Virus record (IMG/VR): IMGVR_UViG_3300030328_003630
Span: 3,095-32,257 of that record
DNA length: 29,163 nt
Direction: 5' to 3' (one strand)
Source of the DNA: a virus
The notes beneath the pieces were generated by a model. It made no database searches and was not told where the DNA came from. It worked only from the letters and a program-made list of their open reading frames with translations. Positions 11,801 through 29,163 of this stretch are shown in pieces; positions within the stretch are counted from its first letter, which is position 1; the number at the start of each line of letters is the position of its first letter. A program made the translations under genes and the position numbers.

Positions 11801-14800
11801 TGTTATTAACCATAGTATAACTGGTGAGGTTGCATTAAATCAAAATGTATGTTATGACAATGGTGTGATACCAGTTCCTACAGGATGTACTGATCCCGTA
11901 ATACTAAATGATAATTTAAACGTAATAAGACCTGATGGTACTGAAGTTATAGTACAAGTTGTTGGTTTTAATGACCCACAGAATAATGGTACTGCAAACG
12001 CTTTACAGTTAAGATCTACTTTATATGACACAACTTATTATTTAAATTGGCATAATTGTTATTCATTTGGTAACGGTGTAGAGTCTAATAGAATTAGAGA
12101 TGGGTTTAATTTACCTTATATACTTAACGGTGTTAAAGCATCAACAACTTTATCCGAACAATATAAAGAAGAAAATAGAAAATACGGTTTAATATATTCT
12201 GGACTATACAACTCTATTAGTGGTATTAATAATTTGAATCAGTTTATAATGGCTGAAAAAATTACTAAAGATATAAACCCTATATATGGTAGTATTCAAA
12301 AACTACACTCTAGAAATACTGATTTAGTAACATTATGTGAAGATAAAGTATTAAAAATATTAGCAAATAAAGATGCTGTATATAATGCTGATGGAAACCC
12401 TCAATTAACAGCAACAGAAAATGTTTTAGGACAAACAATACCTTTTATTGGTGAATATGGTATATCTAAAAACCCAGAGTCGTTTGCTTCAGAAGCTTAT
12501 AGAGCTTATTTTACAGACAAAGTGAGAGGTACTGTTATGAGATTATCTAAAGATGGATTAACAGCGATATCTGAACATGGCATGAAAGATTGGTTTAGAG
12601 ATAATTTAAAGCTTTCTTATCAATTAATTGGTAGTTACGATGACAGAAAAGACGAGTATAATCTAACTGTTAAACAAAACGATACAACCGTTCAAACTAG
12701 TAACAACACGACTATAACAGCTAATAATACCACTACAATATCTTTTAAAGAAAACGTAAAAGGTTGGGTAAGTTTTAAATCTTTTGTATATGAAAACGCT
12801 AATAGCGCTGCTAACGAATACTTTACATTTTTAGATGGACATTTATGGAAACATCATCACGAAGGGCCAGCGCTTAATCCACATCCAAGAAATACTTTTT
12901 ACAACAATCCACCTGTACCTTCAAGTTTTAACGTTATACTAAATGATTTACCAAGCAGTATAAAATCATTTAATACTTTAAATTACGAAGGTTCTCAATC
13001 TAAAATACAACTATTAATAGATAAAGATCCAATGGATAAAATAACTGGTCTTCCTACTGGGTTGTTATATAGTGATAATGAGTATTATAATTTAATACCT
13101 AAAGACGGTTGGTATGTTCATAGTATAGAAACTGATCAAGAAAAAGGTAGTTTAGAGGAGTTTATAGAAAAAGAAGGAAAATGGTTTAACTATATAAGAG
13201 GTAGAAATATTGGCGTAACTCAAGACGGTCGTTTAACTAATGATTATAGTGATTTTGATGTTAATAGCTTAGCAGTTCAAGGTATTGGAAGAGCTAGTAA
13301 CATAACAACATCAGCCGTAGCTCAATGTACAGATCCTACGTTCTTTAATGGAAGTACTAGTAATACTTATGATTGTAATGGTCAACCTGCGGGAACTTTT
13401 GGTAGTGGATGGAACTCAAGTCCTTGTTGTATACCGGTTATAGGTGGTTGTCTTGATCCAAACGCTGATTTAGGTAGTTACATACAACCAATTAACGATC
13501 CTATGGTTGACGCTAATACTGATGATGGATCATGTAAGTACGAAGGTTGTTTAAATGATCCAACAGCCGTGAACTATGGAGGTCCTGGTAATCAAAATAA
13601 TATTTTCCCAATAGTAACACATGATAACGGGTCTTGTACTTCTGCCATACCTGGATGTACTAATCCTACAGCGTTTAACTATGACATAAGCGCTAATATT
13701 GATGATGGTAGTTGTTACCCTGTTATTCCTGGATGTATGGATAGTTGGACTGGATCAAATCTAACAACTTATTCTGGAGCAATAACAGTGGTTAATTATG
13801 TTCAACCAACAGGTAATCTTCAACAAGACGTAAACACAGAAGATGGAAGTTGTATTTACGCGGGTTGTTTAAATAATCCTTCAGCTATTAACTATATTAA
13901 TACTACACCATTATCTACAGCAACCTCTACTACAACTGCAACTTGTGATGACACCATGCCTTATCCACACACTGTAAACCCTAACGGTTTACCACCTTGT
14001 ATTATGCAAGACGATCAATCTTGCGCTGGTGTTGGTGGTTGTACGGATGCCGCGGCTTGTCAGGGTATTTATCCATTAGGCGCTACAGTTAACGATGGTA
14101 GTTGTTACTATCAAGCTTGTTCTGATATTAATGTTAGTGTAGTTAACTATGGTGTATTTGAGGATTCTACGGGTAATATTACCATGAATGGGGCAAATAT
14201 AGTTAACTTAGGTGCACCTTTAGTTGGTACGGGTAGTACTTGTGGTTGTAAATACTGCGAAACACCAACTATCACTAGTCACAACTCTGTTTATGATCCG
14301 AACACGGGAGCGTATACTGTAACTGTATCTTGGGATACCCCAGCTCTTCCTTGGGATGCTAGTATGTTGCAAGATTTTGAAATTTGGTGGTGGGATCCTT
14401 CTTGTGGGGGTAATAGTGGTTGTAGCAATCCATATGATCAATCATCAGGAATACAAGGTTCAACAGTTCTTAACGTAACTAACCCACTAAACTCTGTAAC
14501 TTATAGTAATCAACAAGCTGAAATTGTTGTTATTCCTGCATCACCTAATGTACAGATAAGAAGTAGATGTAACGGGGTAAATTCAACTCCAGGATTAACT
14601 GTAATTACTAGTGATACTGATTCACAATTAATTCCTCTTGGAGCTCCTACCGTTGCTGGATGTACTTGTGATGGAGGTCTTGGTAATGGAGCAGCACCAG
14701 CTAATGATTGTTATAATGATCAAACTCCAGCTGCTAATTATAATATAAACGCCAATGTTGATGATGGTTCATGTGTTCAAGCATTGCCTGGATGTACGTG

Positions 14801-17183
14801 TGGTGGTGATCAAGTTAACGGTCAATTAAATGGTATGGTTCCACCTACTTATAATGATTGTCATGGTAATGGGTATCCAGCTCCAAACTTTGACCCAACA
14901 GCTAATGTAGATGATGGATCATGTTCTCCACCATCTCCAGGTTGTTCAGATCCAACGGCTTTAAACTTTATGCCTTGGACTGTTGGACAGCCAAACGCAA
15001 CAACGTTTAATAACACGTATTGTAAGTACTCATGCCAACCTATAACTGGTTTATTTGCACAAAACATAACACCAACATACGCGGAATTTTTCTGGACACA
15101 AGCTTCAAGTCAGCCGTTTGGAACGTGGCCTAATATTTTTAATCCAGCCGCTACTCAAGCTATAGATATAAAATTAGAAAGATGGGATGCGAACTGGGGT
15201 AATAATGGAGCTTGGGTTTCTTATATATCTAACTTTGCTGGATATCCACCTAGCACTACAGCGAGTGTACAGTATTTAAGCAACGTTCCTGGTACTGGTG
15301 GTACTAACTTATTTTATAAATATACAGGATCTGTAACAGGAATAAGTTCGTTTGATGGTTATGATGGTGTTGATATGAACGGTGGTGATGGAACACAAAC
15401 CGCGATACGTATTAAACCTTGTCCTCAACCAGGTTCAAATTATCAAGGTAGTATGTTTAGTTGTGATAATACTATAGACGATGATCCAACAAATAATTGT
15501 GGGTGTCATGATTATAATAGTTTAAATAACGGTAAACAGTATACTAGTGGTGATCCAGGACAAAGTCATGGTGGAGCTTTCTTCCCTGGAATGTTAGCAC
15601 CAAATACACAATATAAATTTACTTATCAAAACCATTGTACAACTACAAACTCAGCACTAGAGCAATCTGTAACTTTTACAACGCCACATTTACAGGGTTG
15701 TACAAATCAACTTGCTGGTAATTATAATAAATTCGCTACACAAGATGATGGTAGTTGTGCGTTTAACGGATGTACGAATGCAGCGGCAATGAACTTTGGT
15801 TGTAGTATAGATGATCCAAACTGGGATCCAAATGGAAACACACCTTGTACTAGCAACATAGCTACAGTTAGTACTGGACAATGTGCAAATGATGGTTGCT
15901 GTAACATGTCAACGACACAATTTGGCTGTTTACATCAAGATGCGTTTAACAATGACTGTGCGACTGCAAACGCACTTAACGCTGTAGCACCGTGTACAGA
16001 TGGTGTTACTCAAAGTATTCCTGGTTCCACTTCTTTATGTAAAACATTAGGTATGCCTTTAGCTGTTGATAATTTCCCAAATTATGATCCTAGTACTAAC
16101 AATGGAGGTGTAGTTAATTTTTGGACAAGTAACAGTCCTCTAAATAGTTCTGGTTATTTTGTGGGATACAAAACAGCTTTCTTCTTAATGGACTTAAGCA
16201 CCACGTATGGATGGAGAATTTGGGATAACTCAGGTAACGTTGTACCTGGTGGTGTTGATCGAATAAAAAACAACGCGCTCCAAACCACTCCTATTAAAGG
16301 TAGTATTGAAGGTGGTTTTAGTGTAGATCCAGGAACATCTGGTTATACACCAGTATATTCATATGGTAATTCTTATTGGCCTGCTAATCAAAGCCTTCAG
16401 GTAAGTGATTTTACACCAATGAACTTCTCAAATAGTGTATATTGGTCCTTAGGAAATGGTAATAGATTTTTAGCTATAAACTTTGGTAGATCATCAGCAA
16501 CCAGACCAATGCCTGGTAATTTAGTTGATATTCAATTTAAGAAAAAAATTAAGAGTCATGATCTAAGTAACGAAGCTGAAAGCACTGTTAACTTTAGTCA
16601 AGTAACAGTACCGGCTTGTTCAGAAGATCCAATTACAGTTGTTCCTGGACCTCAACTAACAGGTTCAAACCCGCAATTCAATGGAACTATGGGTACTCAA
16701 ACTATAACTCAACAAACAACTTACCAAGGGCCAGGGTTAAATAATGAGCTTTATTTCCAATATCAAGGGCAATATCACCCAGGTATTAATTGGGACATGA
16801 CTGATCCAAACGTAGGTAATAATCATTTCTTTGTTTGTTATACCGCAACAACCGGTGGAGCTATTTCTTGCGCAACGCCTCAACCACCGGGATGGGATGG
16901 TAACAACCCTGCGGTTAACACTTATAAACTAACCCTTCCGCAAAATACAGTTGCTACAGTGTGGTATGGAATGAGATGTAACGTGATGGATGTAGGAGAT
17001 AGAGTATTTAATCCAACAACATCTCTCAACCACATAGAAGTTGATTCTCATTGGTACGCTAATATAAACAATGCAAACTATATAAATACTCAGCAGTGGA
17101 ATACTTGGTTTGAAGGTGGTGTGTTAAATGGTGGAAATCCTTCTATACAATATGATACTGGTAGTGGTACTATTATTCCTTAA
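5886..17183 (+). CDS. Giant tail nozzle/muzzle-like protein with adhesin repeats (3765 aa)
   Basis: The N-terminus (FTGGKMNKDLDERLVPNGEY, then RDAMNIEV) is like phage tail nozzle/muzzle or DNA-stabilising proteins, usually far shorter. Residues about 96-545 look like an insertion, with a lone degenerate repeat start, GGCIDPTATYFDPSTNA (about 477-493). Beta-propeller-like strands follow, such as MITGLNIIDDLLFWTDGESE (about 578-597) and FPRFGYRYKYVDGEYSSFSH near 850. A further tail-like region, with SEFPAIWETEPKETTDLDVY near 1900 and GLIYSGLYNSISGINNLNQF near 2100, runs to about 2500. From C2522 to about residue 3400 the chain is Cys-rich, with DDGSC-type repeats and two fibronectin-III-like modules (about 2791-2918 and 3050-3272). 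The last 360 residues are beta-rich and unrecognised, possibly the tip. It probably forms the tail conduit and the host-binding surface in one chain. The frame is uninterrupted; no signal peptide is seen. Confidence 0.65.
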   Translation: MSEIKHHFTGGKMNKDLDERLVPNGEYRDAMNIEVSTSEGSEVGTVQNILGNIEGCTWPNPPYDGGDPILPGSKTVGSISDEKNDTLYWLICGPNFDTSFVQQQIQDLQTQYGNTYDPVVHFPPLYAKDMIMRKNVDNGSCEPVLVDLYGVVVANIDTNANTNVDSFVIPAVNLPHVHVGMNVQTVDTNGSISEPTQVQSVGAINSITSSVGQNFSTTTSVLQSFNGNSFQVLMPTIPAFQGLNLTGNSPSYHHCILIQDCTITVPPMGLNTSNAQQHLQGGCQSTSVWDTQIASQGFVTNVNSEWSVNDGSGVNMLPPGANLVSQELVLMSMASGLAFRKACFEVNGVPAIMTGTTAPIPAVDNTSFPDYHTLYNPNGVLANTLITPVSGFLFAGPIVPPAFSFDVTQYTSTSAMNNIITLPPNSPWLDDLYQSLFDAGNDGIYGGPNPDDILTPGAQQIAIIPNSTFPDLGSGTGGCIDPTATYFDPSTNALYPDPQSVNQIHIVDCTTGAPVVMASGVNDTTIGLTVEFNMPAFTTSSNTIYVTQPLPSVDRIQQPYLYFSSDRVLKFNQNNMITGLNIIDDLLFWTDGESEPKKINITRSVAGTSPNGLQHTNLINNAANINPTTGSTVPIKETHVTVVRKPPKKQLSFTVSDTNRSINDFNSAIIDTIPTVAGTSTSSINTWNLANADIGDEIWLIIPTALGDNGTQHQTFTLSWRAGDILLLNPSNPNGTLPGTPLLIEDFYLKAEVLSQNINLTSDPSDPGSLTSLNLPVNYFNWATLGAIGSFVGAPGSQAILNSTAAVRVKIVGKNNIPPTPGAGFPDPLQWVVDLLSEEEKLYEFKFPRFGYRYKYVDGEYSSFSHFTEVAFSPGPFRYHSKYGYNLAMRNNASNIILSGFSPWLSSMAGAPFQREYEDVESVDILYKEEGSPSVYVVDTIRPDDELQVDQRFNAWYSDSYKITSENIRAILPENQLLRTYDNVPLKAKAQEVTGNRIVYGNYWQNFNLITSSNTEYYPDFDINVGVHSADPGTTEAITSIKTLRDYQLGVSFLDEFGRETPVISSSNATFSLEKSRSGSYNRLQVGFKDITGAPLNMKYYKFYIKETDGEYYNMAMDRWYNAEDGGIWLSFPSSDRNKVDIDSFIILKKAMETDDIVTDSARYKVLAIENEAPDFIKTKKIQISQKLHDVGSSNPLAFDIFQNTERPLLNEKEFKLLYSNSVTSEKVYSNSSISRLDEEETSRGTLYFELENPTTNVTSARYRIASLSKTTWDIGQTPTSIYFNVKLKEKLGTDISIFTDDPSGVNQTKIIDNTLVNLYEYKVENSAEFDGRFFVKIHQDSTFNRHILGNSPSSDDELFVVTHRNLYLLPDQNTSNQHRYAFRMYDFGANTNDWMNSKNLLPTRAVVDFTWNNDKSWVDYIKVTNATGQFLDNVSPWQGFAGAKWIPYQAFFRCMNVYDYNGTSNPTEGFQNGVGDHGIDWRLPAPQNYNFWGHWESLAPSLNPPLGSAGVSNVQWEFESDLNPTFADVWFIDEDPYISSFAYNGGNGKWTNKPTGAGGTGKGIQTGQTGAVIDLGFGGIQPVDAWPGLGGGCGGNISSSGFVATCEADEFFRIADANSVYAAEQEEFVNRIVPGQKLRFKEDPNQEVYKIINVDHEYRVRYSSDPYKDGTLNHRKSAKGIGSGHNAVTSSLTGAGGSGGILYSTSTYFRPSNFTRNFIITLDKNLSWNPVGSGIGVPINGGTSVSVNTVASGTVSSDGTYIALACTDKVKVGMVLDNVNGTPVVDGPSQGGNFHPMIVVGSYNITTQNQCHSTIINLNAYYADKHVEGDNGGTITSAGNNVPVTFRQYTMNGLSNNSVKAINAFSGYNYNHPNIPSSASGGVSIGAEALGYNIEFLDGIEGGEPLMSEFPAIWETEPKETTDLDVYYEISDYNPLMLDGESIKTFIPRRSIIYNAASQDPLNPGIPGDTRVINHSITGEVALNQNVCYDNGVIPVPTGCTDPVILNDNLNVIRPDGTEVIVQVVGFNDPQNNGTANALQLRSTLYDTTYYLNWHNCYSFGNGVESNRIRDGFNLPYILNGVKASTTLSEQYKEENRKYGLIYSGLYNSISGINNLNQFIMAEKITKDINPIYGSIQKLHSRNTDLVTLCEDKVLKILANKDAVYNADGNPQLTATENVLGQTIPFIGEYGISKNPESFASEAYRAYFTDKVRGTVMRLSKDGLTAISEHGMKDWFRDNLKLSYQLIGSYDDRKDEYNLTVKQNDTTVQTSNNTTITANNTTTISFKENVKGWVSFKSFVYENANSAANEYFTFLDGHLWKHHHEGPALNPHPRNTFYNNPPVPSSFNVILNDLPSSIKSFNTLNYEGSQSKIQLLIDKDPMDKITGLPTGLLYSDNEYYNLIPKDGWYVHSIETDQEKGSLEEFIEKEGKWFNYIRGRNIGVTQDGRLTNDYSDFDVNSLAVQGIGRASNITTSAVAQCTDPTFFNGSTSNTYDCNGQPAGTFGSGWNSSPCCIPVIGGCLDPNADLGSYIQPINDPMVDANTDDGSCKYEGCLNDPTAVNYGGPGNQNNIFPIVTHDNGSCTSAIPGCTNPTAFNYDISANIDDGSCYPVIPGCMDSWTGSNLTTYSGAITVVNYVQPTGNLQQDVNTEDGSCIYAGCLNNPSAINYINTTPLSTATSTTTATCDDTMPYPHTVNPNGLPPCIMQDDQSCAGVGGCTDAAACQGIYPLGATVNDGSCYYQACSDINVSVVNYGVFEDSTGNITMNGANIVNLGAPLVGTGSTCGCKYCETPTITSHNSVYDPNTGAYTVTVSWDTPALPWDASMLQDFEIWWWDPSCGGNSGCSNPYDQSSGIQGSTVLNVTNPLNSVTYSNQQAEIVVIPASPNVQIRSRCNGVNSTPGLTVITSDTDSQLIPLGAPTVAGCTCDGGLGNGAAPANDCYNDQTPAANYNINANVDDGSCVQALPGCTCGGDQVNGQLNGMVPPTYNDCHGNGYPAPNFDPTANVDDGSCSPPSPGCSDPTALNFMPWTVGQPNATTFNNTYCKYSCQPITGLFAQNITPTYAEFFWTQASSQPFGTWPNIFNPAATQAIDIKLERWDANWGNNGAWVSYISNFAGYPPSTTASVQYLSNVPGTGGTNLFYKYTGSVTGISSFDGYDGVDMNGGDGTQTAIRIKPCPQPGSNYQGSMFSCDNTIDDDPTNNCGCHDYNSLNNGKQYTSGDPGQSHGGAFFPGMLAPNTQYKFTYQNHCTTTNSALEQSVTFTTPHLQGCTNQLAGNYNKFATQDDGSCAFNGCTNAAAMNFGCSIDDPNWDPNGNTPCTSNIATVSTGQCANDGCCNMSTTQFGCLHQDAFNNDCATANALNAVAPCTDGVTQSIPGSTSLCKTLGMPLAVDNFPNYDPSTNNGGVVNFWTSNSPLNSSGYFVGYKTAFFLMDLSTTYGWRIWDNSGNVVPGGVDRIKNNALQTTPIKGSIEGGFSVDPGTSGYTPVYSYGNSYWPANQSLQVSDFTPMNFSNSVYWSLGNGNRFLAINFGRSSATRPMPGNLVDIQFKKKIKSHDLSNEAESTVNFSQVTVPACSEDPITVVPGPQLTGSNPQFNGTMGTQTITQQTTYQGPGLNNELYFQYQGQYHPGINWDMTDPNVGNNHFFVCYTATTGGAISCATPQPPGWDGNNPAVNTYKLTLPQNTVATVWYGMRCNVMDVGDRVFNPTTSLNHIEVDSHWYANINNANYINTQQWNTWFEGGVLNGGNPSIQYDTGSGTIIP
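13449..15758 (+). repeat. Coding array of GCxDPxAxNY...DDGSC repeats
   Basis: Within the giant tail gene, nine copies of a Cys-ended motif are visible. DDGSC or close variants start at residues 2546, 2580 (DNGSC), 2606, 2652 (EDGSC), 2709 (DDQSC), 2736 (NDGSC), 2959, 3009 and 3287. Most are preceded by GC plus DPTA-NY-like residues, as in GCTNPTAFNYDISANIDDGS. The spacing is irregular because two fibronectin-III-like modules interrupt the array. The DNA copies are diverged rather than identical. The Asp-rich loops suggest calcium binding and the Cys pairs suggest disulfides formed outside the cell, both inferred. Confidence 0.85.
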
Positions 17184-19219: not shown

Positions 19220-20377
19220 ATGGCTACATGGATAAACCCAAACCCACCAGATTGGACTCAAGCTCCTCCTGCAAATACGCAAGAGAGAAGAGATTGGTAT
19301 ACTAAACATAACTTAAAGCAAGATCATACTACAGTTTTATTTGGTAGTGGTAGTGGATCTTCTGGATATTCATCGACTCAAAACGCGTACAATGAAGGTT
19401 TTGGTAGCCTTGGTGGAACTAGTATGAGTGGTTCAGATCTGGCCTACAGTAACGATGCGGTAAGTAAAATGGGGTTTGACTATCTTAGAAGAGGAACTGG
19501 AAATCCAACATCACCTCAACTAAAACAAGCACCTGATTACTTATATGACGATAGTGATATTACTTTTGTAGACAACAACCCAAGAGGAAACAATATGGAC
19601 ACGCAATATAATATTAAAGGTTTTGATTATTCATCTCCAGCTGAAGATCAGTTTGGAAGCGGTAATAATTCTCAACGTAATCCAGCTGCTACAGCTGCTA
19701 TTATACAGGGTACTGCTGGGATTATACAGGGTTTAGCGGGTAGAGAAGGTAGAAAAATTGCTCAAGCTGATGCTCAAGAGGCTTATGACGATCTATTAGC
19801 TCAATATAGAAACTTAGACACTAGTAATATATACGCGGATGTAGAAAACTTTTTTGCAGAAAATGTTTACGAAGATTTAACAGTAAATAGACAGCAGGCA
19901 GAATTTGAAAAAGAAATGTTTGAAAGAAATCAAGCAAATATAATGAGTAATTTAGCTGGAGCAGCGGGAGGTAGTGGTATAGCTAGTTTAGCTCAAGCTA
20001 TGGCAAACCAAAGCCAAATACAAGCTCAAAGAGCAGCTGGAACTATTGGAATGCAAGAATCTAGAAACCAAATGTTAAGAGCACAGGGGGCTTTACAAGT
20101 TCAAAAAGGAGAAATGCTTGCTGCACAAATGAGATTACAAGGCGCTGAAACAGCTAGAGCACTAGAGTGGCAAAGAACGATGACTGAATTAGGAATGTCA
20201 CAGCAAGATTTAGCAGCGGCTAATCAAGCTCAAGCTCAAGGTGAATCTTCTTTATGGGGAGGTGTTGGAACAGTTGCTGGTGGTATTATTGGCGCTTATT
20301 TTGGTGGGCCAGCTGGTGCTTCTATGGGTGCTCAAATAGGAGGTTCTTTAGGATCAAGTATTGGAAAAACTGATTAG
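19220..20377 (+). CDS. Probable internal virion/ejection protein with C-terminal glycine zipper
   Basis: Residues 1-155 are Gly/Ser/Asn-rich and probably flexible. A short Ala/Ile/Gly stretch (TAAIIQGTAGIIQGLAGREG) leads into long Gln/Ala-rich helices (about 175-340), including GAAGGSGIASLAQAMANQSQ and QMRLQGAETARALEWQRTMT. The last 36 residues (G347-G382) are a glycine-zipper-like membrane segment, WGGVGTVAGGIIGAYFGGPA followed by GASMGAQIGGSLGSSIG. Soluble helical proteins with such tails occur among internal core proteins that phages inject to line a channel across the host envelope, for example T7 gp14-like proteins. The next genes, an unrecognised protein and a huge multidomain protein, match the usual grouping of ejection proteins. 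The gene follows a 50-base gap with no clear promoter or hairpin and ends with the only TAG stop in the window. The role is inferred. Confidence 0.6.
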   Translation: MATWINPNPPDWTQAPPANTQERRDWYTKHNLKQDHTTVLFGSGSGSSGYSSTQNAYNEGFGSLGGTSMSGSDLAYSNDAVSKMGFDYLRRGTGNPTSPQLKQAPDYLYDDSDITFVDNNPRGNNMDTQYNIKGFDYSSPAEDQFGSGNNSQRNPAATAAIIQGTAGIIQGLAGREGRKIAQADAQEAYDDLLAQYRNLDTSNIYADVENFFAENVYEDLTVNRQQAEFEKEMFERNQANIMSNLAGAAGGSGIASLAQAMANQSQIQAQRAAGTIGMQESRNQMLRAQGALQVQKGEMLAAQMRLQGAETARALEWQRTMTELGMSQQDLAAANQAQAQGESSLWGGVGTVAGGIIGAYFGGPAGASMGAQIGGSLGSSIGKTD

Positions 20378-20402: not shown

Positions 20403-21683
20403 ATGGCAAAAAAAGGATTATCATACGGACCAAATACAGCTCTTATATTCGGACAGAGAGACGTAGCAATGTCTGAAGCAGCTCGTAAAAGTGCTGGTGG
20501 AATGGGTTTTACTAAAGGTCTTACTGATTCTTTCATAAGTGCTTATGCTTACGGTCAAAAAGAAAAAGAAAAAAGTAAAGCTTTAGTTGATAAGTATGCA
20601 GATAAAATTAAAGTACCTAGTGGTGCGGTTCTTTTAACAGGTGAAAATAGACAAACGGCACTTGACTTTACAAGAAAAAAACGTCAACAAGTAGTTGATC
20701 TTATGCAGAAATATATACAAGGTGGTAAAAAAGATAAAAATATATTAGATGAAATACAACTAATAGAAGCATCTGTCGCTAACTTTGGAAATCAAGTAAA
20801 AGTTTATAACAAAGAATCTGGTGAATATACATTGGCTAATAGTAAAAATCAAATAGCACGAGGCAAAAGTTTTGATTACAAAAAGTATGATAATATTCTT
20901 ACTAATAATAGCTCAATGAGTGTAGAAGATAATGGTAATTTAGGTTTTACCACTAATGGTGTTTATGATAAATATATAGATGTGACTGGTGGTTGGAATG
21001 TTAATAATAATATATGGAATAAAAGCTTTTTAACATTAGATGGTGCTGTAGTTCAAAACGCGCGAAAAGGTGGTAAATTTGATGCAACAGGTATACAAAA
21101 CAATATTTCATTAGGTCTTAAAAACATGGGACCAGAAGAAGTTCAAGTAGCTCTTGAAACAGACATAACTGGAGATGATGATTTTCTTCTTAAAGATGGG
21201 AAAACAGCTGGTCCTCTTTCTTTTGAGGCTATATGGAGTAGTGGCGGTATGGACCCTAAATATTATAAAGGTTTTACACCTGAAAAAGGTGGTACTTATA
21301 ATAGCGATTGGATGTTTGATGATAACAACGTTAATCAAGCTATTAAATTATTTTCAATGTATAATACAGATGTTCTAGGTGATAGACACACTGGTAATTT
21401 TGTACAAAAAAGAAGTGATAACAACAAACGTCGTGAAGGCGCCGGTGTTTTGGGTGGTTTTAAAACATGGGCCCAAATAGATGATGTGGCTCAAGATATA
21501 AAAAATAAAAAAGGCCACACTGATCTAGCTGGTGTTACTTGGCTTTGGAGCGACAAGTTAAATACTTTTACAACTTCTGATGGAAAAACTAAAAGATCAC
21601 CAGAGCAGTTATTATCACGTAATCAAATAAAATATTTATATCCAGATATGTTTAAAGTTGATACACAATACAAAGACGAATAA
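20403..21683 (+). CDS. Unrecognised protein of the probable ejection module (426 aa)
   Basis: I do not recognise a domain. The protein begins MAKKGLSYGPNTALIFGQRD and has a long helical, basic N-terminal part to about residue 135 (KGLTDSFISAYAYGQKEKEK, FTRKKRQQVVDLMQKYIQGG). The remainder is mixed and rich in Gly, Asn, Asp and Trp, with no Cys. It includes VYDKYIDVTGGWNVNNNIWN and the run DGKTAGPLSFEAIWSSGG. There is no signal peptide, membrane span or enzyme motif. By order, between a glycine-zipper protein and a huge internal-virion-like protein, it could match the middle member of three ejection proteins, as gp15 does in T7. No sequence likeness to gp15 can be claimed from here. Its TAA stop is followed after one base by the next ATG, so the two genes are probably translationally coupled. 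Confidence 0.75.
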   Translation: MAKKGLSYGPNTALIFGQRDVAMSEAARKSAGGMGFTKGLTDSFISAYAYGQKEKEKSKALVDKYADKIKVPSGAVLLTGENRQTALDFTRKKRQQVVDLMQKYIQGGKKDKNILDEIQLIEASVANFGNQVKVYNKESGEYTLANSKNQIARGKSFDYKKYDNILTNNSSMSVEDNGNLGFTTNGVYDKYIDVTGGWNVNNNIWNKSFLTLDGAVVQNARKGGKFDATGIQNNISLGLKNMGPEEVQVALETDITGDDDFLLKDGKTAGPLSFEAIWSSGGMDPKYYKGFTPEKGGTYNSDWMFDDNNVNQAIKLFSMYNTDVLGDRHTGNFVQKRSDNNKRREGAGVLGGFKTWAQIDDVAQDIKNKKGHTDLAGVTWLWSDKLNTFTTSDGKTKRSPEQLLSRNQIKYLYPDMFKVDTQYKDE

Positions 21684-21684
21684 T

Positions 21685-24600
21685 ATGAGTGAATTTTACG
21701 AATTCGAAGGCACAACATATGAAGTAAGTCCTGGTAGACTAGAGGAGTTTATGGAAAGATTTCCTGATGCTACAAAATCTCGTGAAAGTTTGGAACTAAG
21801 ATCTATTGATCCAAAAACTGGTCAACCAATACCTGAGGGTGATTTATTAATAGGTGATGGTATATTAACAGAAGATCAAATAAACGAACAAAAAAGACAT
21901 GCTGAGGCTGAGCAAGCGTCTAGAGAGGTTTTAAAAGATTTTTATTCAAAAACAACAGGCATACCAAAGTTTATGTTACCATATGTAACTAATTTCACTG
22001 GTGGAACAGCTGGACTTGTTAGTGGTTTATTTAAAAGTGTAGAAGCTACGGCTGAAAATATAATAGGTATGTCTGCTCAAGAACAAAGAGAAGATGGTGT
22101 AAACCCTATATCTGCCGCTTTAGATAGTTTTCATGATTTCACAGATGCTTTTGATACTAAATATTATGATAAACAAGGTAGATCTTTACAGGTTGATGAA
22201 CTGTTAGAAAGAGGAGAATATAGCAAAGCAATACAAATAGGATCAGAACAAGCAGCTGAGTCAGCACCTTCTATGATAGCTAGCGCTTACAACCCAATGC
22301 TTGGTGGTGCTTTAATGGGTGTATCAACCGCTGGTACAACTTATTTTGATGATTTAGAAAATAGACCAGACGCCGTGGCTGGTGATATTATAAAAAATTC
22401 TTTAATAGCTGGTTCTTCTGAATTTTTAACAGAGTGGGCTGGGGGCTATGCTTTTAGAAGAATAAACAAAATAGGTTCAAAACTAAAAGGTACTGGTAAC
22501 GCAGAAAAAGTAGCAAAAGATTTTACAAAAGGTTATATTAATAAATTTATAACTAGAACTTTAGGTAGTGGTATTGGGGAAGCAACTACTGAATCTGTAA
22601 ACTCTATGGTTCAAGACTTAGGTTCAAACTGGGTTTATGATGAGGCTTTTGATAAAAAACAATTTGTTAGTAATGTTATAAACAGCGCTGTACCAGCACT
22701 ATTATTAGGTGGTTTTGGTGGAGGTATGTCAACTTTAAATAAACAAGACAGAAAAGATCTTTACAAGTTTGTGGCAGATGGAAAATGGAAAAGAGATTAT
22801 ATGGATATCGGTAAGCAGATATACGAAACGTCTAACGATTATAAAAATGCTGATAGCGAATCTACAAAGAAAATTTTTAAAGAGAAATTAGATAATTTAC
22901 AAAAACAAAAACAAAAACACGAGCAAGATTTATTTGATTCATTTGAAAATTTATCAGATAAAGAATTAACAGATATTGCTAAAAGAATAGATAAAGTAAA
23001 TAAAAATGCTAATATAGTTGGTAATAATAAATATTCACAAACAGCACAACAAGAAGCTGAATTAGAAACTTTAGAATTATTACAAAAAAATTATGATACA
23101 CTTGGTAGAGAATATACTAGTAAAGATATTGAAGTAGATAAAATTATTAGTGAAAGTTTAAAAGCTAGTGAAAGATTAGATCCTATGCTTAAAAAGCTTA
23201 AGGGTATAAATAGAGAAGATCTTGAAACACAAGTAATAAATACAGATAAAGAATTACAAGCATTACCTGAAAATATAAGAAAACAAGTTGAAAAAGGTGA
23301 TGGATATTTTTTAGCTAAAGACAAAGATGGTAAAGCTAAAATATATATAAACGCTAGAATAGCTGGTTTATCTGGTGCTACAAATGTTGTAGGTCATGAG
23401 CTACTACACTACATGATATCTAGAAAATTTAAGACTGATAATAAATCTATGAAACCTTTTATAGATAGTTTAAAAAGCTATTTACAAGAAAATCATGCTG
23501 ACGTTTATAGTCGTTTACAAACTAGAATAGATAATTTTTACACTAATCCAGATGGTACTATAAAAGAAGCTGCGTTAGAAGAGTATTTAGAAATATTTTC
23601 CGATTTAGTTGCAACTGAAAAAATTGATTTAAAAGAAAACGAATCAAAAGGTTTTAGAGATAATATGAAAGATATATTATTAGGTTTTGGTTTAGGTGGA
23701 GGAAAAACAGGTTTAGGTAAAGGTGAAGTTCAATTAGACACAGCTCAAGATTTTATAAGGTTTATAAGAGCTTATAATAAAAATATAAATAGAAAAAGTT
23801 TACTTGGCAAACTAATGGGTACTAAAATATTAGACGTTAAGTTAAAAAGTAAAACTTTAAAAGAAGGTAAACCAGAAACTATAGGTAAAAAATCTATGTC
23901 AGCTGCTGAAGTCAAACAAGTAGAAGAAAGAGTTACAGAAATAGGTTTAACATATAACATGAAAGGTGGTAAAAAACTTTGGGATGAAAAAGGTGCTGAT
24001 CAAGCTATAGATGAGATGAAACGTGATGGTACTATAGATAACTTAATAGCTTCTAAATACAAAGTTAGACCAGTACCAGAAGGATTTATCAATGATGTGT
24101 TTAATAAACTAATACCAGATATAAGAGGTTTTAATCCAGAAATTAACAATGATTTTGGTGGTTACTTAGGTCCTAGAATTAATTTTAGAGCAGGTGATAT
24201 TTATAAAGAAATATATGAGAAAAAAGGCCCAGCTACAGTACCTACAGAAGCTAGAACAAAAGAAGGTGAAGTAAAAGTTCAAATTGCAGCTGAAACAGAC
24301 GCTGCTATGGAAGCTTTTGAAACCGAAGATTTATCTCCAGAAGCTCAAACTGCAAAATTAAAAGAGCTAGAATCTCAAATGAGAAAAGATCTTGAGTTGT
24401 CAAAAGAAAAGAAAGAAAAAGTAATGGCAGCTGCTAGAAAAATATTTGGTCTAGCGTTGCCTTCTATTAATAATCCTAGAGTATATAGAAAAGCAGTTGC
24501 AAAAGCTTTTAAGGTAGAGTTAAAAAGTGAAATACAAGATATTTTTGGTAGAGAAAAAGAATATAATGCTTTTTTAGAAAAGTATATACCAGTTTTTCAT

Positions 24601-27600
24601 AATTTAATAGATAAAGAAACTTGGATTCAAATAGAAAGATTAGCACCAAAAGATAAAAAAATATTTGCAGAAAAAAGAAGAATAACAAAAGTTGTAGAAG
24701 TTAGAAAATTACAAGAACAAGGTTTAATAAGTAAAGATATAAAACCTGCTTCTGGCCCTAGTTTAATAACCTTGTTACCAACTCCTTCTACAAGGCAGAT
24801 CATGGCTTTTTATAGAGGTAAATATAAAAACCCAGATACAGGTAAGGTTGAAACAATGGAAGATATTTTAGGATACACTGTTGGTGAGTCAACTTTTGGT
24901 ACTAGAAAAGATGCTTTAGCAGAAGCAGTACTGGTGGAACTTGGTTTTGACGCCAGTGTAGATGTGTTGAATAATGAAAGAGAAGTTGCTGAAAGAAGAA
25001 GGGGTGTTGATGAAATAATTAATAAAGAACAACTTGAAAACGATATTGAGCTAATAGCAAAAGCACTTGATAGAGATCCAAATTTAAAGTTTAGTAAAAG
25101 CGCTATAGTTTTAAGCCAATTTGATGACTTGTTAAGCAAAATAGAAGATAAAGGTTTTAAAAATGTATTTAATATAGATGGAACTCCTAAAGTTAACTTT
25201 TATGGAAAAAGATATTTAGAAGAGGTTTATGAGCCGGTATATGAACTAGGTAATAAAGGTGGTTTATTTACTGCAAAAGAAGTAAACAAGCAATTAAAAG
25301 AACTTTTTAAAGGTCTTAGAATAAAAGCAGATAATACACTGGGTGATACCTCAGAAAGAGCAGTTTTTGAATTATTTGAAAGAGCTGATTTTATAGCTCC
25401 AGGATTTCAACTTAGTGAAAAAAAGGTTGATATACCAGCGTTTCATACTTTTGTAGGTGGGAAATTTCAAAGTGCAGATATAATGTTTGTATTAAAAAAC
25501 GCTGTACAAGTTGCAATGGAGGTTAAATTTGCTGTTGATGGTACGGTTAATGCTGGTAAAATAGGTGTAAAAAGTTTTAACTCTAAAAATGGTAAATATA
25601 CAATAGATGAATCTTTACCAGAAAACGTTAAAAAAGTAATAAGAAAAAGTTATGATAAGACCGCAAAAGTAGTTTTAGAAATGCAAGATTTACTTATAAG
25701 TGAATTTGGTTATCCTAAAACTTTAGATTTAAGTAAAGAAAAGTTTTTGTTTGACAAAAACGGTGTCGCTAAATCTCCAAATGGTAAGGTTATATATACA
25801 ATGGTCAACAACAAACCAATATGGCATGATAAAATTAAAAAGTTAAAAGCCAAATCTAACCAAACTACTAAAGATAGTGGTGATGTAGTTACTTATCATT
25901 ATAATAAAAAAGGTAATTTTTATATAACGTTTGTAGGCGTTGGAAAAGGAAAAGGAGTTTACTATATAGGTGAAGATCCGCTTAATGTTTCTAAAGAACT
26001 AGGTGTTGAGAAATTAGAAAGCAATGAAGACGGTTTTTTGTTTAAAACTAGACTTTTAACAAGTAGTGTGCGTAAAACTGTAGATGGTATAAAAGACGTA
26101 AAAGTTGGTTATAAACTAACACTAAATGGAGAGTCTGTTGTTAACACTAATAATATAGCTAAAACATCAAAATTTAATATTAAGTCTGAAAAAGATGTAA
26201 AAACATTTAAAAAAGCAGTTAACAAAAGTATACATGCTAATATAAAACATGGTAAAAGCAGTAAAACATTAAATAATGCTGTTAAAATGTCTAGATCTAT
26301 TGGTGATCCAAAGGGTATTACTGTTTTAGATTTTGATGATACGTTAGCAACAACTAAATCTTTAGTTAAATTTACTAGACCAGATGGAACTACTGGAACT
26401 TTAAATGCTGAAGAATATGCTAGTACGTATGAAGATTTATTAGATCAAGGATATACGTTTGATTTCTCAGATTTTAATAAAGTTGTAAAAGGTAAGTTAG
26501 CACCATTGTTTAATAAAGCAATGAAATTACAAGGTAAGTTTGGTCCAGAAAATATGTTTGTATTAACAGCTAGACCACCTGCTGCTCAAAAAGCTATATT
26601 TGATTTCTTAAAAGCCAATGGTTTAAACATACCATTAAAAAATATAACTGGTTTAGGTAACTCTACAGCAGAAGCAAAAGCATTGTGGATAGCTGATAAG
26701 GTTGGTGAAGGTTATAATGACTTTTATTTTGCTGATGATGCTTTACAAAACGTGCAAGCTGTTAAGAACATGTTAGATCAATTCGATGTTAAGTCTAAGG
26801 TTCAACAAGCTAAGGTCAAGTTTAGTAAATCAATGAATGATAATTTTAATGATATACTAGAAAACGTAACTGGTATTGAATCTAAGAAAAGATTTTCAGC
26901 TGTTAAAGCTAGAAAACGTGGTGCTGGTAAAGGTAAGTTTAGATTCTTTATACCACCATCACACGAGGATTTTGTAGGATTATTATACAACTTTATAGGC
27001 AAAGGTAAAGAAGGTAATAAGCATAGAGATTTCTTTGAAGAATCTTTAATTAAACCATTATTAAGAGCTGATAGAGAATTAAACACAGCTAGACAGTCGA
27101 TAGCTAATGATTATAGATCATTAAATAAACAATTTAAAAACGTTAAAAAGAAATTAAATAAAAAAACCCCAGATGGTGATTTTACTTATCAAGATGCTAT
27201 AAGAGTATATTTGTGGAATAAGCATGGTCATGACATTCCTGGATTAACACCAACTGATCAGCAAAATTTAGTTGATTTAGTTAAGTCTGATCCTGAGTTA
27301 CAAAATTATGCTGAAACGCTAAACATTATATCTAAAAGAGAAGATTATGTAAAACCTTCTGAAGGTTGGGAGGTTACAGATATAAGAGTGGATTTAGATG
27401 ATGCGACTGGTAGAATTGGAAGAAAAGAATTCTTTGCTGAATTTCTTGAAAATGCAGGGATAATATTTTCTGAAGAAAATTTTAATAAAATAGAAGCAGC
27501 TTATGGCCCTGATATGGTTAGTGCTCTTAAAGATATGTTATATAGAATAGAGAACGGTAGAAATAGACCTAGTGGATCAAATAAGATTGTAAATGGATTT

Positions 27601-28899
27601 ATGAACTGGTTTAATGCTTCTGTTGCTGCAACTATGTTTATCAATGTAAGATCTGTAGTATTACAGCAAATGTCTTTAGTTAACTTTATAAATTACAGTG
27701 ATAACAATGTGTTTGCTGCTGCGAAAGCCTTTGCTAATCAAAAACAATATTGGACTGATTGGGCAACTTTATTTAACTCTGATTTTATGAAGCAAAGACG
27801 TGGTGGTATAATGACAGACGTTAACGGTGCTGAATTAGCAGAATCATTAAGAGGCGCTAAAAACAATCCAGTAGTATTGTTAGGTAAATTATTACAAATG
27901 GGTTTTAAACCAACTCAAATTGGGGATAATGTTGCAATTGCTACCGGTGGAGCTACTTATTATAGAAATAGAATTAATACGTATTTAAAACAAGGGTTAA
28001 GTCAAAAAGAAGCAGAGGCAAAAGCATTTGTTGATTTTCAAGGATTAGCAGAGGCCACACAGCAATCAGCTAAACCTTGGATGGTTTCAGCACAACAAGC
28101 AGCTGCGCTTGGAAAAATAATATTAGCATTCCAAAACGTTACGTCTCAATTTAATAGATTGGGTAAAAAAGCATTTTTAGATATTAAAAACAGAAGAATA
28201 AGTCCTGAATATAAAAACGCTAAAAACCCACAATTACAAAGTGACATGTCTAACTTATCAAGAATAGCTTATTACTTTGCAATACAAAACTTAGTATTCT
28301 ATACTTTACAATCAGCATTATTTATGGCGATGTTTGATGATGATGAAGATGAAAAACAGTTGTTAAAGAAAAAAGAAAGAGTTATTAATGGTAGTATTGA
28401 TTCTGTTTTAAGAGGTACCGGTGTTTGGGGAGCGGTTGTTGCTACTTTAAAAAATATGGCTAGAAAACGTTTTGAAAATGAAGGTAAAGATTGGAGAGCT
28501 AATGAATATAGCGTGATGGCTGAGGCACTACAGGTTTCTCCACCTCTTGGCGCGAGAACTAGAAAGTTAGTTAAAGCTGAAAGAGAACTTATTTGGGATA
28601 AAAAGGTTATTAAAGAAATGGAAACTTTTGATATTGAAAACCCACTTTGGCCAGCTGTAACAAACTATATTGAAGGAACAACTAACGCCCCACTTAACAG
28701 ATCGTATAACTTAACGCTTCAAGCTAAAGACGGGTTAGACAATCAGTTTAGCGCTCTTCAAAGAGTTCTTAGACTTGGTGGTTGGGGTCGATGGGATGTT
28801 GGGATTGAAGGTATAAAAAAGTCTAAAAAGAAAGGAAAGTCTGGTGGTAAGAAGAAAACTAAAAGTATAGAAAAAGCTTTTAAAGAAAAGGGATTATAA
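21685..28899 (+). CDS. Giant polyvalent virion protein: metallopeptidase, nuclease-like and HAD phosphatase motifs (2404 aa)
   Basis: The ATG at 21685 was chosen over an in-frame TTG at 21658, which would overlap the upstream gene. Order of parts: N-terminal SEFYEFEGTTYEVSPGRLEE; glycine-rich hydrophobic helices (about 96-128, 231-260 and 329-353); charged coiled-coil (about 360-540); zincin motif HELLH at 571-575, with a possible third ligand in EEYLEIFSD (E632/E633). A PD-(D/E)XK-like set follows (E1224, D1265, E1279, K1281 in MEVKF), then a HAD phosphatase set: DFDDT 1549-1553, T1628 in LTARP, K1665, DD1684-1685. Hydrophobic helices recur at about 1975-2010 and 2190-2220, and the tail is Lys-rich. 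The C-terminal 650 residues resemble conserved proteins of marine phages. Large 'polyvalent' phage proteins with such enzyme mixtures are thought to enter the cell with DNA and counter defences or remodel the envelope. Injection is inferred here from that family and from the ejection-like neighbours. Confidence 0.7.
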   Translation: MSEFYEFEGTTYEVSPGRLEEFMERFPDATKSRESLELRSIDPKTGQPIPEGDLLIGDGILTEDQINEQKRHAEAEQASREVLKDFYSKTTGIPKFMLPYVTNFTGGTAGLVSGLFKSVEATAENIIGMSAQEQREDGVNPISAALDSFHDFTDAFDTKYYDKQGRSLQVDELLERGEYSKAIQIGSEQAAESAPSMIASAYNPMLGGALMGVSTAGTTYFDDLENRPDAVAGDIIKNSLIAGSSEFLTEWAGGYAFRRINKIGSKLKGTGNAEKVAKDFTKGYINKFITRTLGSGIGEATTESVNSMVQDLGSNWVYDEAFDKKQFVSNVINSAVPALLLGGFGGGMSTLNKQDRKDLYKFVADGKWKRDYMDIGKQIYETSNDYKNADSESTKKIFKEKLDNLQKQKQKHEQDLFDSFENLSDKELTDIAKRIDKVNKNANIVGNNKYSQTAQQEAELETLELLQKNYDTLGREYTSKDIEVDKIISESLKASERLDPMLKKLKGINREDLETQVINTDKELQALPENIRKQVEKGDGYFLAKDKDGKAKIYINARIAGLSGATNVVGHELLHYMISRKFKTDNKSMKPFIDSLKSYLQENHADVYSRLQTRIDNFYTNPDGTIKEAALEEYLEIFSDLVATEKIDLKENESKGFRDNMKDILLGFGLGGGKTGLGKGEVQLDTAQDFIRFIRAYNKNINRKSLLGKLMGTKILDVKLKSKTLKEGKPETIGKKSMSAAEVKQVEERVTEIGLTYNMKGGKKLWDEKGADQAIDEMKRDGTIDNLIASKYKVRPVPEGFINDVFNKLIPDIRGFNPEINNDFGGYLGPRINFRAGDIYKEIYEKKGPATVPTEARTKEGEVKVQIAAETDAAMEAFETEDLSPEAQTAKLKELESQMRKDLELSKEKKEKVMAAARKIFGLALPSINNPRVYRKAVAKAFKVELKSEIQDIFGREKEYNAFLEKYIPVFHNLIDKETWIQIERLAPKDKKIFAEKRRITKVVEVRKLQEQGLISKDIKPASGPSLITLLPTPSTRQIMAFYRGKYKNPDTGKVETMEDILGYTVGESTFGTRKDALAEAVLVELGFDASVDVLNNEREVAERRRGVDEIINKEQLENDIELIAKALDRDPNLKFSKSAIVLSQFDDLLSKIEDKGFKNVFNIDGTPKVNFYGKRYLEEVYEPVYELGNKGGLFTAKEVNKQLKELFKGLRIKADNTLGDTSERAVFELFERADFIAPGFQLSEKKVDIPAFHTFVGGKFQSADIMFVLKNAVQVAMEVKFAVDGTVNAGKIGVKSFNSKNGKYTIDESLPENVKKVIRKSYDKTAKVVLEMQDLLISEFGYPKTLDLSKEKFLFDKNGVAKSPNGKVIYTMVNNKPIWHDKIKKLKAKSNQTTKDSGDVVTYHYNKKGNFYITFVGVGKGKGVYYIGEDPLNVSKELGVEKLESNEDGFLFKTRLLTSSVRKTVDGIKDVKVGYKLTLNGESVVNTNNIAKTSKFNIKSEKDVKTFKKAVNKSIHANIKHGKSSKTLNNAVKMSRSIGDPKGITVLDFDDTLATTKSLVKFTRPDGTTGTLNAEEYASTYEDLLDQGYTFDFSDFNKVVKGKLAPLFNKAMKLQGKFGPENMFVLTARPPAAQKAIFDFLKANGLNIPLKNITGLGNSTAEAKALWIADKVGEGYNDFYFADDALQNVQAVKNMLDQFDVKSKVQQAKVKFSKSMNDNFNDILENVTGIESKKRFSAVKARKRGAGKGKFRFFIPPSHEDFVGLLYNFIGKGKEGNKHRDFFEESLIKPLLRADRELNTARQSIANDYRSLNKQFKNVKKKLNKKTPDGDFTYQDAIRVYLWNKHGHDIPGLTPTDQQNLVDLVKSDPELQNYAETLNIISKREDYVKPSEGWEVTDIRVDLDDATGRIGRKEFFAEFLENAGIIFSEENFNKIEAAYGPDMVSALKDMLYRIENGRNRPSGSNKIVNGFMNWFNASVAATMFINVRSVVLQQMSLVNFINYSDNNVFAAAKAFANQKQYWTDWATLFNSDFMKQRRGGIMTDVNGAELAESLRGAKNNPVVLLGKLLQMGFKPTQIGDNVAIATGGATYYRNRINTYLKQGLSQKEAEAKAFVDFQGLAEATQQSAKPWMVSAQQAAALGKIILAFQNVTSQFNRLGKKAFLDIKNRRISPEYKNAKNPQLQSDMSNLSRIAYYFAIQNLVFYTLQSALFMAMFDDDEDEKQLLKKKERVINGSIDSVLRGTGVWGAVVATLKNMARKRFENEGKDWRANEYSVMAEALQVSPPLGARTRKLVKAERELIWDKKVIKEMETFDIENPLWPAVTNYIEGTTNAPLNRSYNLTLQAKDGLDNQFSALQRVLRLGGWGRWDVGIEGIKKSKKKGKSGGKKKTKSIEKAFKEKGL

Positions 28900-28933: not shown

Positions 28934-29163
28934 ATGGTGAAAAAACTAATAATATTATTAACAACTATTTTAATTGCTTGCGCAGCTCCAAAGAAATGCT
29001 GTTCGCAAACAAATCCAAATATTGATGTTAAAAAGCTTTTAAAGTTCTCTACATTTTATGCCGCTGTAAATGGTGGTACATCATTATCAGATGTTGAAGT
29101 ATTTTCTGTAGGTAATGGTTTATCTACACAAACTATTTCAACTCCTTATGATTATAATTTTAC
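28934..29163 (+). CDS. Exported protein or lipoprotein, 3' end beyond window
   Basis: The ATG follows an A/T-rich gap of 34 bases. The first 76 codons show a classical signal peptide: MVKK, then a hydrophobic run LIILLTTILIAC, then AAPKKCCSQ. LIAC at residues 13-16 fits a lipobox, with Cys16 as the lipidated residue; cleavage before Gln25 by signal peptidase I is the alternative. The mature part starts TNPNIDVKKLLKFSTFYAAV and NGGTSLSDVEVFSVGNGL, a type I recall after the large virion gene in marine flavobacterial phage contigs, with no known function. An exported product would act in the periplasm or outer membrane of the infected cell, for example in surface exclusion or lysis, but that is a guess. 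The gene is cut by the window end. Confidence 0.8.
   Translation, partial: MVKKLIILLTTILIACAAPKKCCSQTNPNIDVKKLLKFSTFYAAVNGGTSLSDVEVFSVGNGLSTQTISTPYDYNF

What the first reader, a model, noticed from the sequence alone, without database searches (positions are those of the whole stretch)
21685..28899. One virion-type chain carries protease, nuclease-like and phosphatase motifs
Seen directly: an HELLH motif, an E/D/ExK set and all four HAD motifs in order in one 2404-aa chain, with hydrophobic glycine-rich helices at both ends. Known: 'polyvalent' phage proteins combine such enzymes and may enter the host with DNA. Inference: this is an injected multi-enzyme package of a Bacteroidota phage, coupled to an ejection-like pair of genes upstream. 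The combination and order may be unreported.
Basis: partly seen in the sequence, partly recalled or inferred. Interest (0 to 1): 0.75.

Follow-up and report, generated by a model that had tools for sequence, protein, structure and literature searches.

The report
Giant swappable multi-enzyme phage cargo protein
A marine virus of Bacteroidota-type bacteria encodes a 2,404-residue protein that joins a predicted protease, a predicted DNA-cutting enzyme, a predicted phosphatase and a domain resembling a bacterial transcription-start factor to a constant tail end, and at least 84 related viruses carry the same end with different enzymes attached, so it looks like an interchangeable package delivered into the host with the viral DNA.

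Summary
ORF 21685-28899 (2404 aa) has HELLH (571-575), an E1224/D1265/E1279-x-K1281 set and all four HAD motifs (1549-1685). The C-terminal module finds 214 IMG/VR loci. In 85 distinct members (76 full length) HAD+C-terminus is constant, while the N-terminus (12 clusters) and the slot before HAD (4 clusters) are exchanged. HExxH occurs in 73/76 (1% in shuffles); with the downstream Glu it is the only invariant set in 62 zincin segments at 22% identity. The modelled zincin is matched by N4 virion RNA polymerase C1 and anthrax lethal factor. The nuclease signature recurs in 19/33 members with that slot type (4% in shuffles), but its fold could not be modelled. Two features were missed. A module after the zincin (58/85) resembles sigma-factor region 2 by fold and profile-profile comparison, though not by HMMER. 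The HAD takes insertions: a zeta/PNK-type kinase in 8 relatives, an ART-like domain in one. Cultured relatives have a giant 'structural protein' at the same place; two giants carry the zincin, one the C-terminal segment. Best reading: a phage-type polyvalent protein, packaged and ejected like N4 vRNAP but without a polymerase. Packaging, ejection and activities are inferred. New variant of a known kind.

The parts
21685..28899 (+). ORF of the giant protein, 2404 aa (P0001)
21685..23154 (+). N-terminal variable module (aa 1-490); one hydrophobic Gly-rich stretch at aa 327-345
   Evidence: shared by 8-18 of 85 members per segment; 12 N-terminal clusters in the family, hydropathy
23161..23694 (+). 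zincin-like metallopeptidase domain (aa 493-670)
   Evidence: 62-member alignment with only H, E, H, E invariant; AF2 model pLDDT 80-95 in the core; VIA-align matches to N4 vRNAP 2124-2364 and anthrax lethal factor
23395..23409 (+). HELLH catalytic motif (aa 571-575); third ligand E633 at 23581-23583
23923..24300 (+). sigma-70-region-2-like helical module (aa 747-872)
   Evidence: top structural matches are sigma region 2; profile-profile 23.2 vs at most 15.6 in 80 shuffles; best-scoring place in an 82-chunk scan; found in 58/85 members; HMMER and Pfam negative
25189..25881 (+). PD-(D/E)xK nuclease-like domain (aa 1169-1399): E1224, D1265, E1279, K1281
   Evidence: AF2 model with 3 sequences failed, pLDDT 33
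26308..26829 (+). HAD phosphatase-like domain (aa 1542-1715), start of the constant end
   Evidence: (Pfam DUF2608 E 1.9e-4, just under cut-off)
26827..28896 (+). constant C-terminal module (aa 1715-2404), proposed packaging/delivery end
   Evidence: 214 loci; one cluster in 74 members
27832..28239 (+). segment of the C-terminal module (about aa 2050-2185) shared with the terminal giant of Tenacibaculum phage Gundel_1
   Evidence: hmmsearch E 1.7e-7 among 5 proteins; hhalign E 1.5e-4 with phi38:1/Gundel C-termini
20403..21683 (+). gene directly upstream (426 aa), fast-evolving, candidate partner ejection protein
   Evidence: homologues in 7 loci only; most other loci listed have a 430-990 aa ORF at this place
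19220..20377 (+). second gene upstream (385 aa), Gly-rich hydrophobic C-terminus, candidate ejection protein
   Evidence: homologues in 85 loci; weak match to elemovirus gp20, 'virion structural protein'
5886..17183 (+). 3765-aa structural protein gene, homologue of phi38:1 gp97; marks the virion-gene context
   Evidence: phmmer E 1.5e-97
1136..2647 (+). virion structural (capsid-position) protein linking the virus to Elemovirus/Pervagoviridae
   Evidence: PHROG 13704 E 1.3e-86; 85 cultured or public records below 60% identity, best rows 37-42%

Best explanation
The 2404-aa protein is a phage-type polyvalent cargo protein of a podovirus related to Elemovirus and Pervagoviridae. It is the last large gene of the structural cluster. 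Proposed working: the constant end (HAD plus about 690 residues) gets the protein into the capsid and/or out through the tail. The exchangeable N-terminal region and middle slot carry the payload. During entry the chain is ejected with the upstream-gene products, as N4 gp50-gp52 are. The zincin then cuts the chain into units or cuts a host protein. The nuclease and HAD domains act on nucleic-acid ends or nucleotides in the first minutes, and the sigma-like module may help the phage engage host RNA polymerase. Shown by sequence: domain order, conserved catalytic residues, constant versus exchanged regions, virion-gene context. Supported by model: zincin fold. Inferred: packaging, ejection, processing, substrates, any transcription role.
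For: Constant HAD+C-terminus (1 cluster in 74) against 12 N-terminal and 4 slot clusters; of 946 pairs at least 70% identical in the constant end, 655 share no slot and 734 no N-terminus. Catalytic residues kept while the rest diverges. Zincin model matched by N4 vRNAP 2124-2364, the published C1 HExxH domain, and by lethal factor. Same genomic slot as 'structural protein' genes of cultured podoviruses; two such giants carry the family zincin (elemo gp18 E 1.8e-9; ctfjg026 E 5.5e-7) and one the C-terminal segment (Gundel gp074 E 1.7e-7). Maribacter phage Panino's terminal giant matches LPD38, a domain listed as exclusive to phage polyvalent proteins (E 1.8e-5, below cut-off). Zeta-toxin/PNK-type kinases (E 1.2e-13) and an ART-PolyVal-like domain (E 0.007) in relatives belong to the polyvalent repertoire. 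Gene order parallels N4 gp52-gp51-gp50.
Against: No proteomic evidence for this protein; 'structural protein' in cultured relatives is an annotation, in phi38:1 by similarity. Pfam MPTase-PolyVal and LPD38 HMMs do not match the window. VIA-align Z of 5-6 is middling. The nuclease model failed and the HAD and C-terminal folds were not modelled. No autocleavage site is identified. There is no detectable sequence homology with N4 gp51/gp52 for the upstream genes.
Confidence: 0.7

Rival explanations
1. Morphogenesis factor: a large virion-assembly protein whose protease processes head or tail proteins during assembly, with remnant or structural enzyme folds; it is not ejected.
For: End of the structural cluster; zincin kept in essentially all members, as an assembly protease would be; P1 DdrB is processed before packaging (PMC5512222).
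Against: Nuclease, kinase, ART and N-terminal parts are exchanged between close relatives, unlike assembly proteases; catalytic residues of HAD and zincin are strictly kept.
Confidence: 0.15
2. Structural inner-tail or channel giant: the protein mainly forms the DNA ejection conduit (like T7 gp14-16, from general knowledge), and the enzyme domains only help the chain cross the envelope.
For: Podovirus gene context; hydrophobic stretches in the N part of 43/74 and C part of 49/74 members.
Against: No peptidoglycan-hydrolase domain found in the family by Pfam; variable nuclease/kinase/ART domains are not needed for a conduit.
Confidence: 0.1
3. On the modules only: the sigma-like module is a generic helical bundle, and the nuclease and HAD domains are inactive scaffolds (compatible with either delivery model).
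For: HMMER and Pfam sigma profiles find nothing; helical bundles often give middling Z; nuclease fold unmodelled.
Against: The best sigma profile-profile match falls on the same module in independent alignments and beats 80 shuffles; catalytic residues are invariant.
Confidence: 0.35

Closest known systems
Phage-type polyvalent proteins (Iyer et al. 2017, PMC5512222)
   Same: Large multi-domain protein encoded among virion genes with a zincin hub domain; relatives carry zeta-type kinase and ART-PolyVal-like domains; domains vary between relatives
   Different: My text searches of that survey found no 'REase', 'haloacid' or 'sigma'; one HAD-plus-C-terminal end is constant here; enzyme domains are inserted inside the HAD domain; a sigma-region-2-like module is present; the MPTase-PolyVal and LPD38 HMMs do not match the window
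Coliphage N4 virion RNA polymerase gp50 (PMC12633501)
   Same: Giant podovirus protein with a zincin-like C1 domain (HExxH, residues 2124-2375), large C-terminal part, two smaller genes directly upstream whose products form the ejection conduit
   Different: No polymerase domain found; sequence homology to gp50-52 is not detectable beyond the HExxH segment; carries nuclease-like, HAD and sigma-like modules instead
Terminal giants of Elemovirus (gp18), Cellulophaga phage phi38:1 (gp101), Tenacibaculum phage Gundel_1 (gp074)
   Same: Same place after the same structural genes, annotated 'structural protein'; zincin in elemo gp18 (and in the uncultured ctfjg026), C-terminal segment in Gundel gp074
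   Different: No HAD motif I in any of the five giants checked; phi38:1 gp101 and Panino's giant lack HExxH; elemo gp18 carries DUF3293
Polynucleotide kinase-phosphatase (PNK-HAD) enzymes
   Same: In 8 relatives a PNK/zeta-type kinase and a HAD domain form one unit
   Different: The kinase is inserted between HAD motifs I and II (cap position) rather than fused at the N-terminus; the window protein has no kinase

Membership tests
Phage-type polyvalent proteins | Two or more different functional domains in one polypeptide | tested here: met
   Zincin and HAD with invariant catalytic residues; nuclease-like motif set
Phage-type polyvalent proteins | Encoded beside virion structural genes | tested here: met
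Phage-type polyvalent proteins | Zincin-like MPTase domain (commonest hub domain) | tested here: met
   HExxH + downstream Glu invariant, AF2 model matched by N4 vRNAP C1 and lethal factor, Z 5.3-5.8; Pfam PF18818 HMM does not match
Phage-type polyvalent proteins | Phage-specific LPD domain (LPD38) | tested here: inconclusive
   PF18857 matches Panino's terminal giant (E 1.8e-5, below cut-off) but not the window
Phage-type polyvalent proteins | Packaged in the virion and delivered to the host | not testable with these tools
   Only annotation 'structural protein' of positional relatives
N4 virion RNA polymerase family | T7-like single-subunit RNA polymerase domain | tested here: not met
   No Pfam or PHROG polymerase match in the window protein or its relatives
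PD-(D/E)xK nuclease superfamily | Catalytic E ... D ... ExK set in order | tested here: met
   Invariant in 3 close homologues; pattern in 19/33 slots, 4% in shuffles
PD-(D/E)xK nuclease superfamily | alpha-beta-beta-beta-alpha-beta core fold | tested here: inconclusive
   AF2 with 3 sequences gave pLDDT 33; only the order of elements is compatible
HAD phosphatase superfamily | Motifs I (DxDxT), II (T/S), III (K), IV (DD) in order | tested here: met
   Invariant in 35 sequences; 77 residues between I and II, 55 between II and IV; Pfam DUF2608 1.9e-4 and HAD 0.077, both below cut-off
HAD phosphatase superfamily | Rossmannoid fold | not tested
Sigma-70 region 2 | Sequence profile match (PF04542) | tested here: not met
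   No match in the giants of 11 family records or in 5 related phage records; the one hit is a separate ORF in one contig; local sigma HMMs also fail
Sigma-70 region 2 | Region-2 helical fold | tested here: inconclusive
   The 11 best VIA-align rows are all sigma factors (region 2), up to Z 6.6; 76 of 77 residues of SigE NTD at 2.7 A; hhalign E 0.0035 above 80 shuffles, best place in 82-chunk scan

The most novel reading that the evidence does not exclude
A virion-delivered protein that carries a sigma-factor-like domain released by its own N4-type zincin: the phage would inject a transcription-initiation specificity factor together with a nuclease and end-processing enzymes, doing with host RNA polymerase what N4 does by injecting its own polymerase.
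Probability: 0.22. Interest if true: 0.88.

Novelty: new variant of a known kind. Interest (0 to 1): 0.62.

Why it matters
If it works as proposed, hundreds of uncultured viruses carry a modular delivery vehicle: one constant end and a changing enzymatic payload that acts before any phage gene is expressed. The constant end gives a handle for finding new early-infection effectors, and cultured relatives (Elemovirus, Pervagoviridae, Pachyviridae) make packaging and ejection directly testable. A sigma-like injected domain would be a new answer to how a phage without its own virion polymerase starts transcription.

Tried and rejected
Single-sequence Pfam and PHROGs scans of P0001 gave nothing usable. 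Profiles of zincin, HAD, nuclease, C-terminus and sigma-like module found nothing meaningful in PDB sequences. A joint alignment for zincin+nuclease misaligned the nuclease rows, so the regions were modelled apart. The nuclease model failed at pLDDT 33. Foldseek against PDB gave no hit at E<=0.001; against BFVD only two fragments of one uncultured-virus protein. A first sigma alignment contained wrong-strand translations and was discarded, redone. My first search found the nuclease segment only in 3 members; clustering of the slot showed divergent forms in more. HMMER sigma profiles gave no signal. The N4-family reading was rejected because no polymerase domain was found. The papers read give no gene-level virion proteomics for the cultured relatives' giants.

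Full report
Observation. ORF 21685-28899 is a single open frame of 2404 codons. The window is part of a 32,257-base virus record (G000). Its neighbours are virion genes: PHROG 13704 for 1136-2647 (E 1.3e-86), PHROGs 14543 and 13977 for 3769-4482 and 4487-5881, and a 3765-aa protein homologous to phi38:1 gp97 (E 1.5e-97). The nearest cultured viruses are podoviruses of Flavobacterium, Cellulophaga, Maribacter and Tenacibaculum; podoviral morphology is published for Calle and Gundel (PMC8776804).

A family with one constant end. A first scan with the whole protein found 15 IMG/VR loci, several matching only the C-terminal third. A profile of aa 1715-2404 found 214 loci, 80 kept. From these I extracted 85 distinct proteins including the window's, 76 of them full length, 2032-3383 aa. 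Identity to the window jumps from background to high values (mostly 60-98%) at about aa 1545, where the HAD domain starts. HAD+C-terminus forms one cluster of 74; the part before the zincin forms 12 clusters and the slot between sigma-like module and HAD forms 4. Of 946 pairs at least 70% identical in the constant end, 655 share no appreciable slot similarity, 734 no N-terminus and 523 neither. This is module exchange onto a constant C-terminus.

Protease. HExxH is present in 73 of 76 full-length members and HDxxH in the other three; a shuffled member has HExxH in 1.0% of cases. In 62 zincin segments with 22% mean identity the invariant columns are exactly H, E, H and a Glu about 60 residues on. 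The AF2 model of aa 488-1165 (51 sequences) has mean pLDDT 79, mostly 80-95 in the zincin. Its VIA-align matches for that part are N4 vRNAP residues 2124-2364 (Z 5.8, 175 residues, 5.2 A) and anthrax lethal factor (Z 5.4, 156 residues, 4.7 A). The N4 range is the published C1 domain (2124-2375) with the HExxH motif (PMC12633501), and lethal factor is the relative named for the polyvalent zincins (PMC5512222). The Z values are middling, but the invariant residues agree. The family zincin profile also matches other giants: elemovirus gp18 (E 1.8e-9) and ctfjg026 (E 5.5e-7), in a search of five proteins.

Sigma-like module. Aa 747-872 was not in the finding. The eleven best VIA-align rows for the model are all sigma factors, matched in region 2; SigE N-terminal domain is covered over 76 of 77 residues at 2.7 A. 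The module occurs in 58 of 85 members, always after the zincin. Against 12 real sigma-2 sequences, hhalign gives score 23.2, E 0.0035, over 77 columns spanning the domain; 80 column shuffles reach at most 15.6. The deeper 58-sequence alignment scores only 14.5 (shuffles at most 12.6). In a scan of 82 chunks from all family alignments the four best chunks come from this part of two alignments, in the same register. Against it: PF04542 and local sigma HMMs find nothing. I put a sigma-2-like fold at about one half, and a transcription role lower.

Nuclease. The close form of aa 1169-1535 is in three viruses with E, D, E and K invariant. The same slot type in 33 members, including the window, holds divergent forms, 19 with a D...ExK pattern such as NPDIRV..FAIEIKG (L063) and RPDIHF..GLEIKM (L067), often after a helix with a conserved Glu; 4% of shuffled slots have the pattern and two or three of the 19 look fortuitous. 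The fold model from three sequences failed (pLDDT 33), so this domain rests on motif recurrence. The other large slot type (38 members) often has an EHxxP motif.

Phosphatase. All HAD residues are invariant in 35 members. Spacing between motifs I and II is 77 in 57 members, 276 in seven and 213 in one; motif II to IV is 55 in all 65 measured. The insertion is a P-loop kinase (Zeta_toxin E 1.2e-13 and AAA_33 E 2.4e-13 in L012, similar in L029; the same sequence type in eight members: L012, L026, L029, L031, L032, L042, L057, L100), and in L052 an ART-PolyVal-like domain (E 0.007, below cut-off). A PHROG polynucleotide-kinase match appears in one member. PNK-HAD fusions are RNA-repair enzymes in jumbo phages (PMC7824862), which suggests, without proof, an end-healing role. 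L014 and L015 lack the HAD and keep the C-terminus.

Delivery. The terminal giant gene sits at the same place in cultured podoviruses and is annotated 'structural protein'. Gundel gp074 shares a C-terminal segment (E 1.7e-7; hhalign E 1.5e-4). Panino's giant matches LPD38 (E 1.8e-5, below cut-off), listed as phage-only among polyvalent domains. The two genes upstream parallel N4 gp52 and gp51, whose products form the ejection conduit, but no homology is detectable. The first is conserved in 85 loci; the second is not.

Conclusion. A phage-type polyvalent protein, ejected like N4 vRNAP but without a polymerase, is the best reading (0.7). Domain anatomy and module exchange are shown; the zincin fold is model-supported; the nuclease and sigma-like assignments are provisional; packaging, ejection and activities are inferred. 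Relative to the published polyvalent survey the constant HAD-containing end, the enzyme-in-HAD insertions and the sigma-like module look new in the texts I could search; absence from those texts is not proof of novelty.

Noticed in passing
window 28934-29161 (runs off the end); full homologues e.g. L031:12111-13208, L081:12101-13219: Gene directly downstream of the giant, about 366 aa in relatives, begins with a signal-peptide-like stretch (MVKKLIILLTTILIACA) and has homologues in 72 loci; no Pfam match. Possibly a secreted or envelope protein encoded by the phage.
   Followed up: partly
window 5886-17183: The 3765-aa structural protein has many cysteine-containing repeats of the type GCxDPxAxNYxxxAxxDDGSC in its C-terminal third.
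   Followed up: no
L012, L026, L029, L031, L032, L042, L057, L100 (HAD region): P-loop zeta/PNK-type kinase of about 199 aa inserted between HAD motifs I and II; L029 also has a deletion removing HAD motif IV.
   Followed up: partly
L052:9071-10001: ART-PolyVal-like domain inserted at the same place of the HAD domain (E 0.007).
   Followed up: partly
slot cluster 0, 38 members (e.g. L053, L065, L013): The alternative slot before HAD often carries an EHxxP motif of unknown nature; a similar motif stands where the HAD would be in L014 and L015.
   Followed up: partly
L040, L083, L098: HExxH replaced by HDAFH or HDGLH in an otherwise similar setting.
   Followed up: no
G009:C1:58589-58819 (contig of L099): Separate 264-aa ORF with a Sigma70_r2 match (E 4.3e-5) in one relative's genome.
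   Followed up: no
L019:31774-37263 (Maribacter phage Panino): Terminal giant annotated 'tRNA methyltransferase' matches LPD38 near its C-terminus.
   Followed up: no
L104 (6.6 kb contig in a Maricaulis MAG): A member of this viral family is binned in an alphaproteobacterial MAG, probably a stray phage contig.
   Followed up: no
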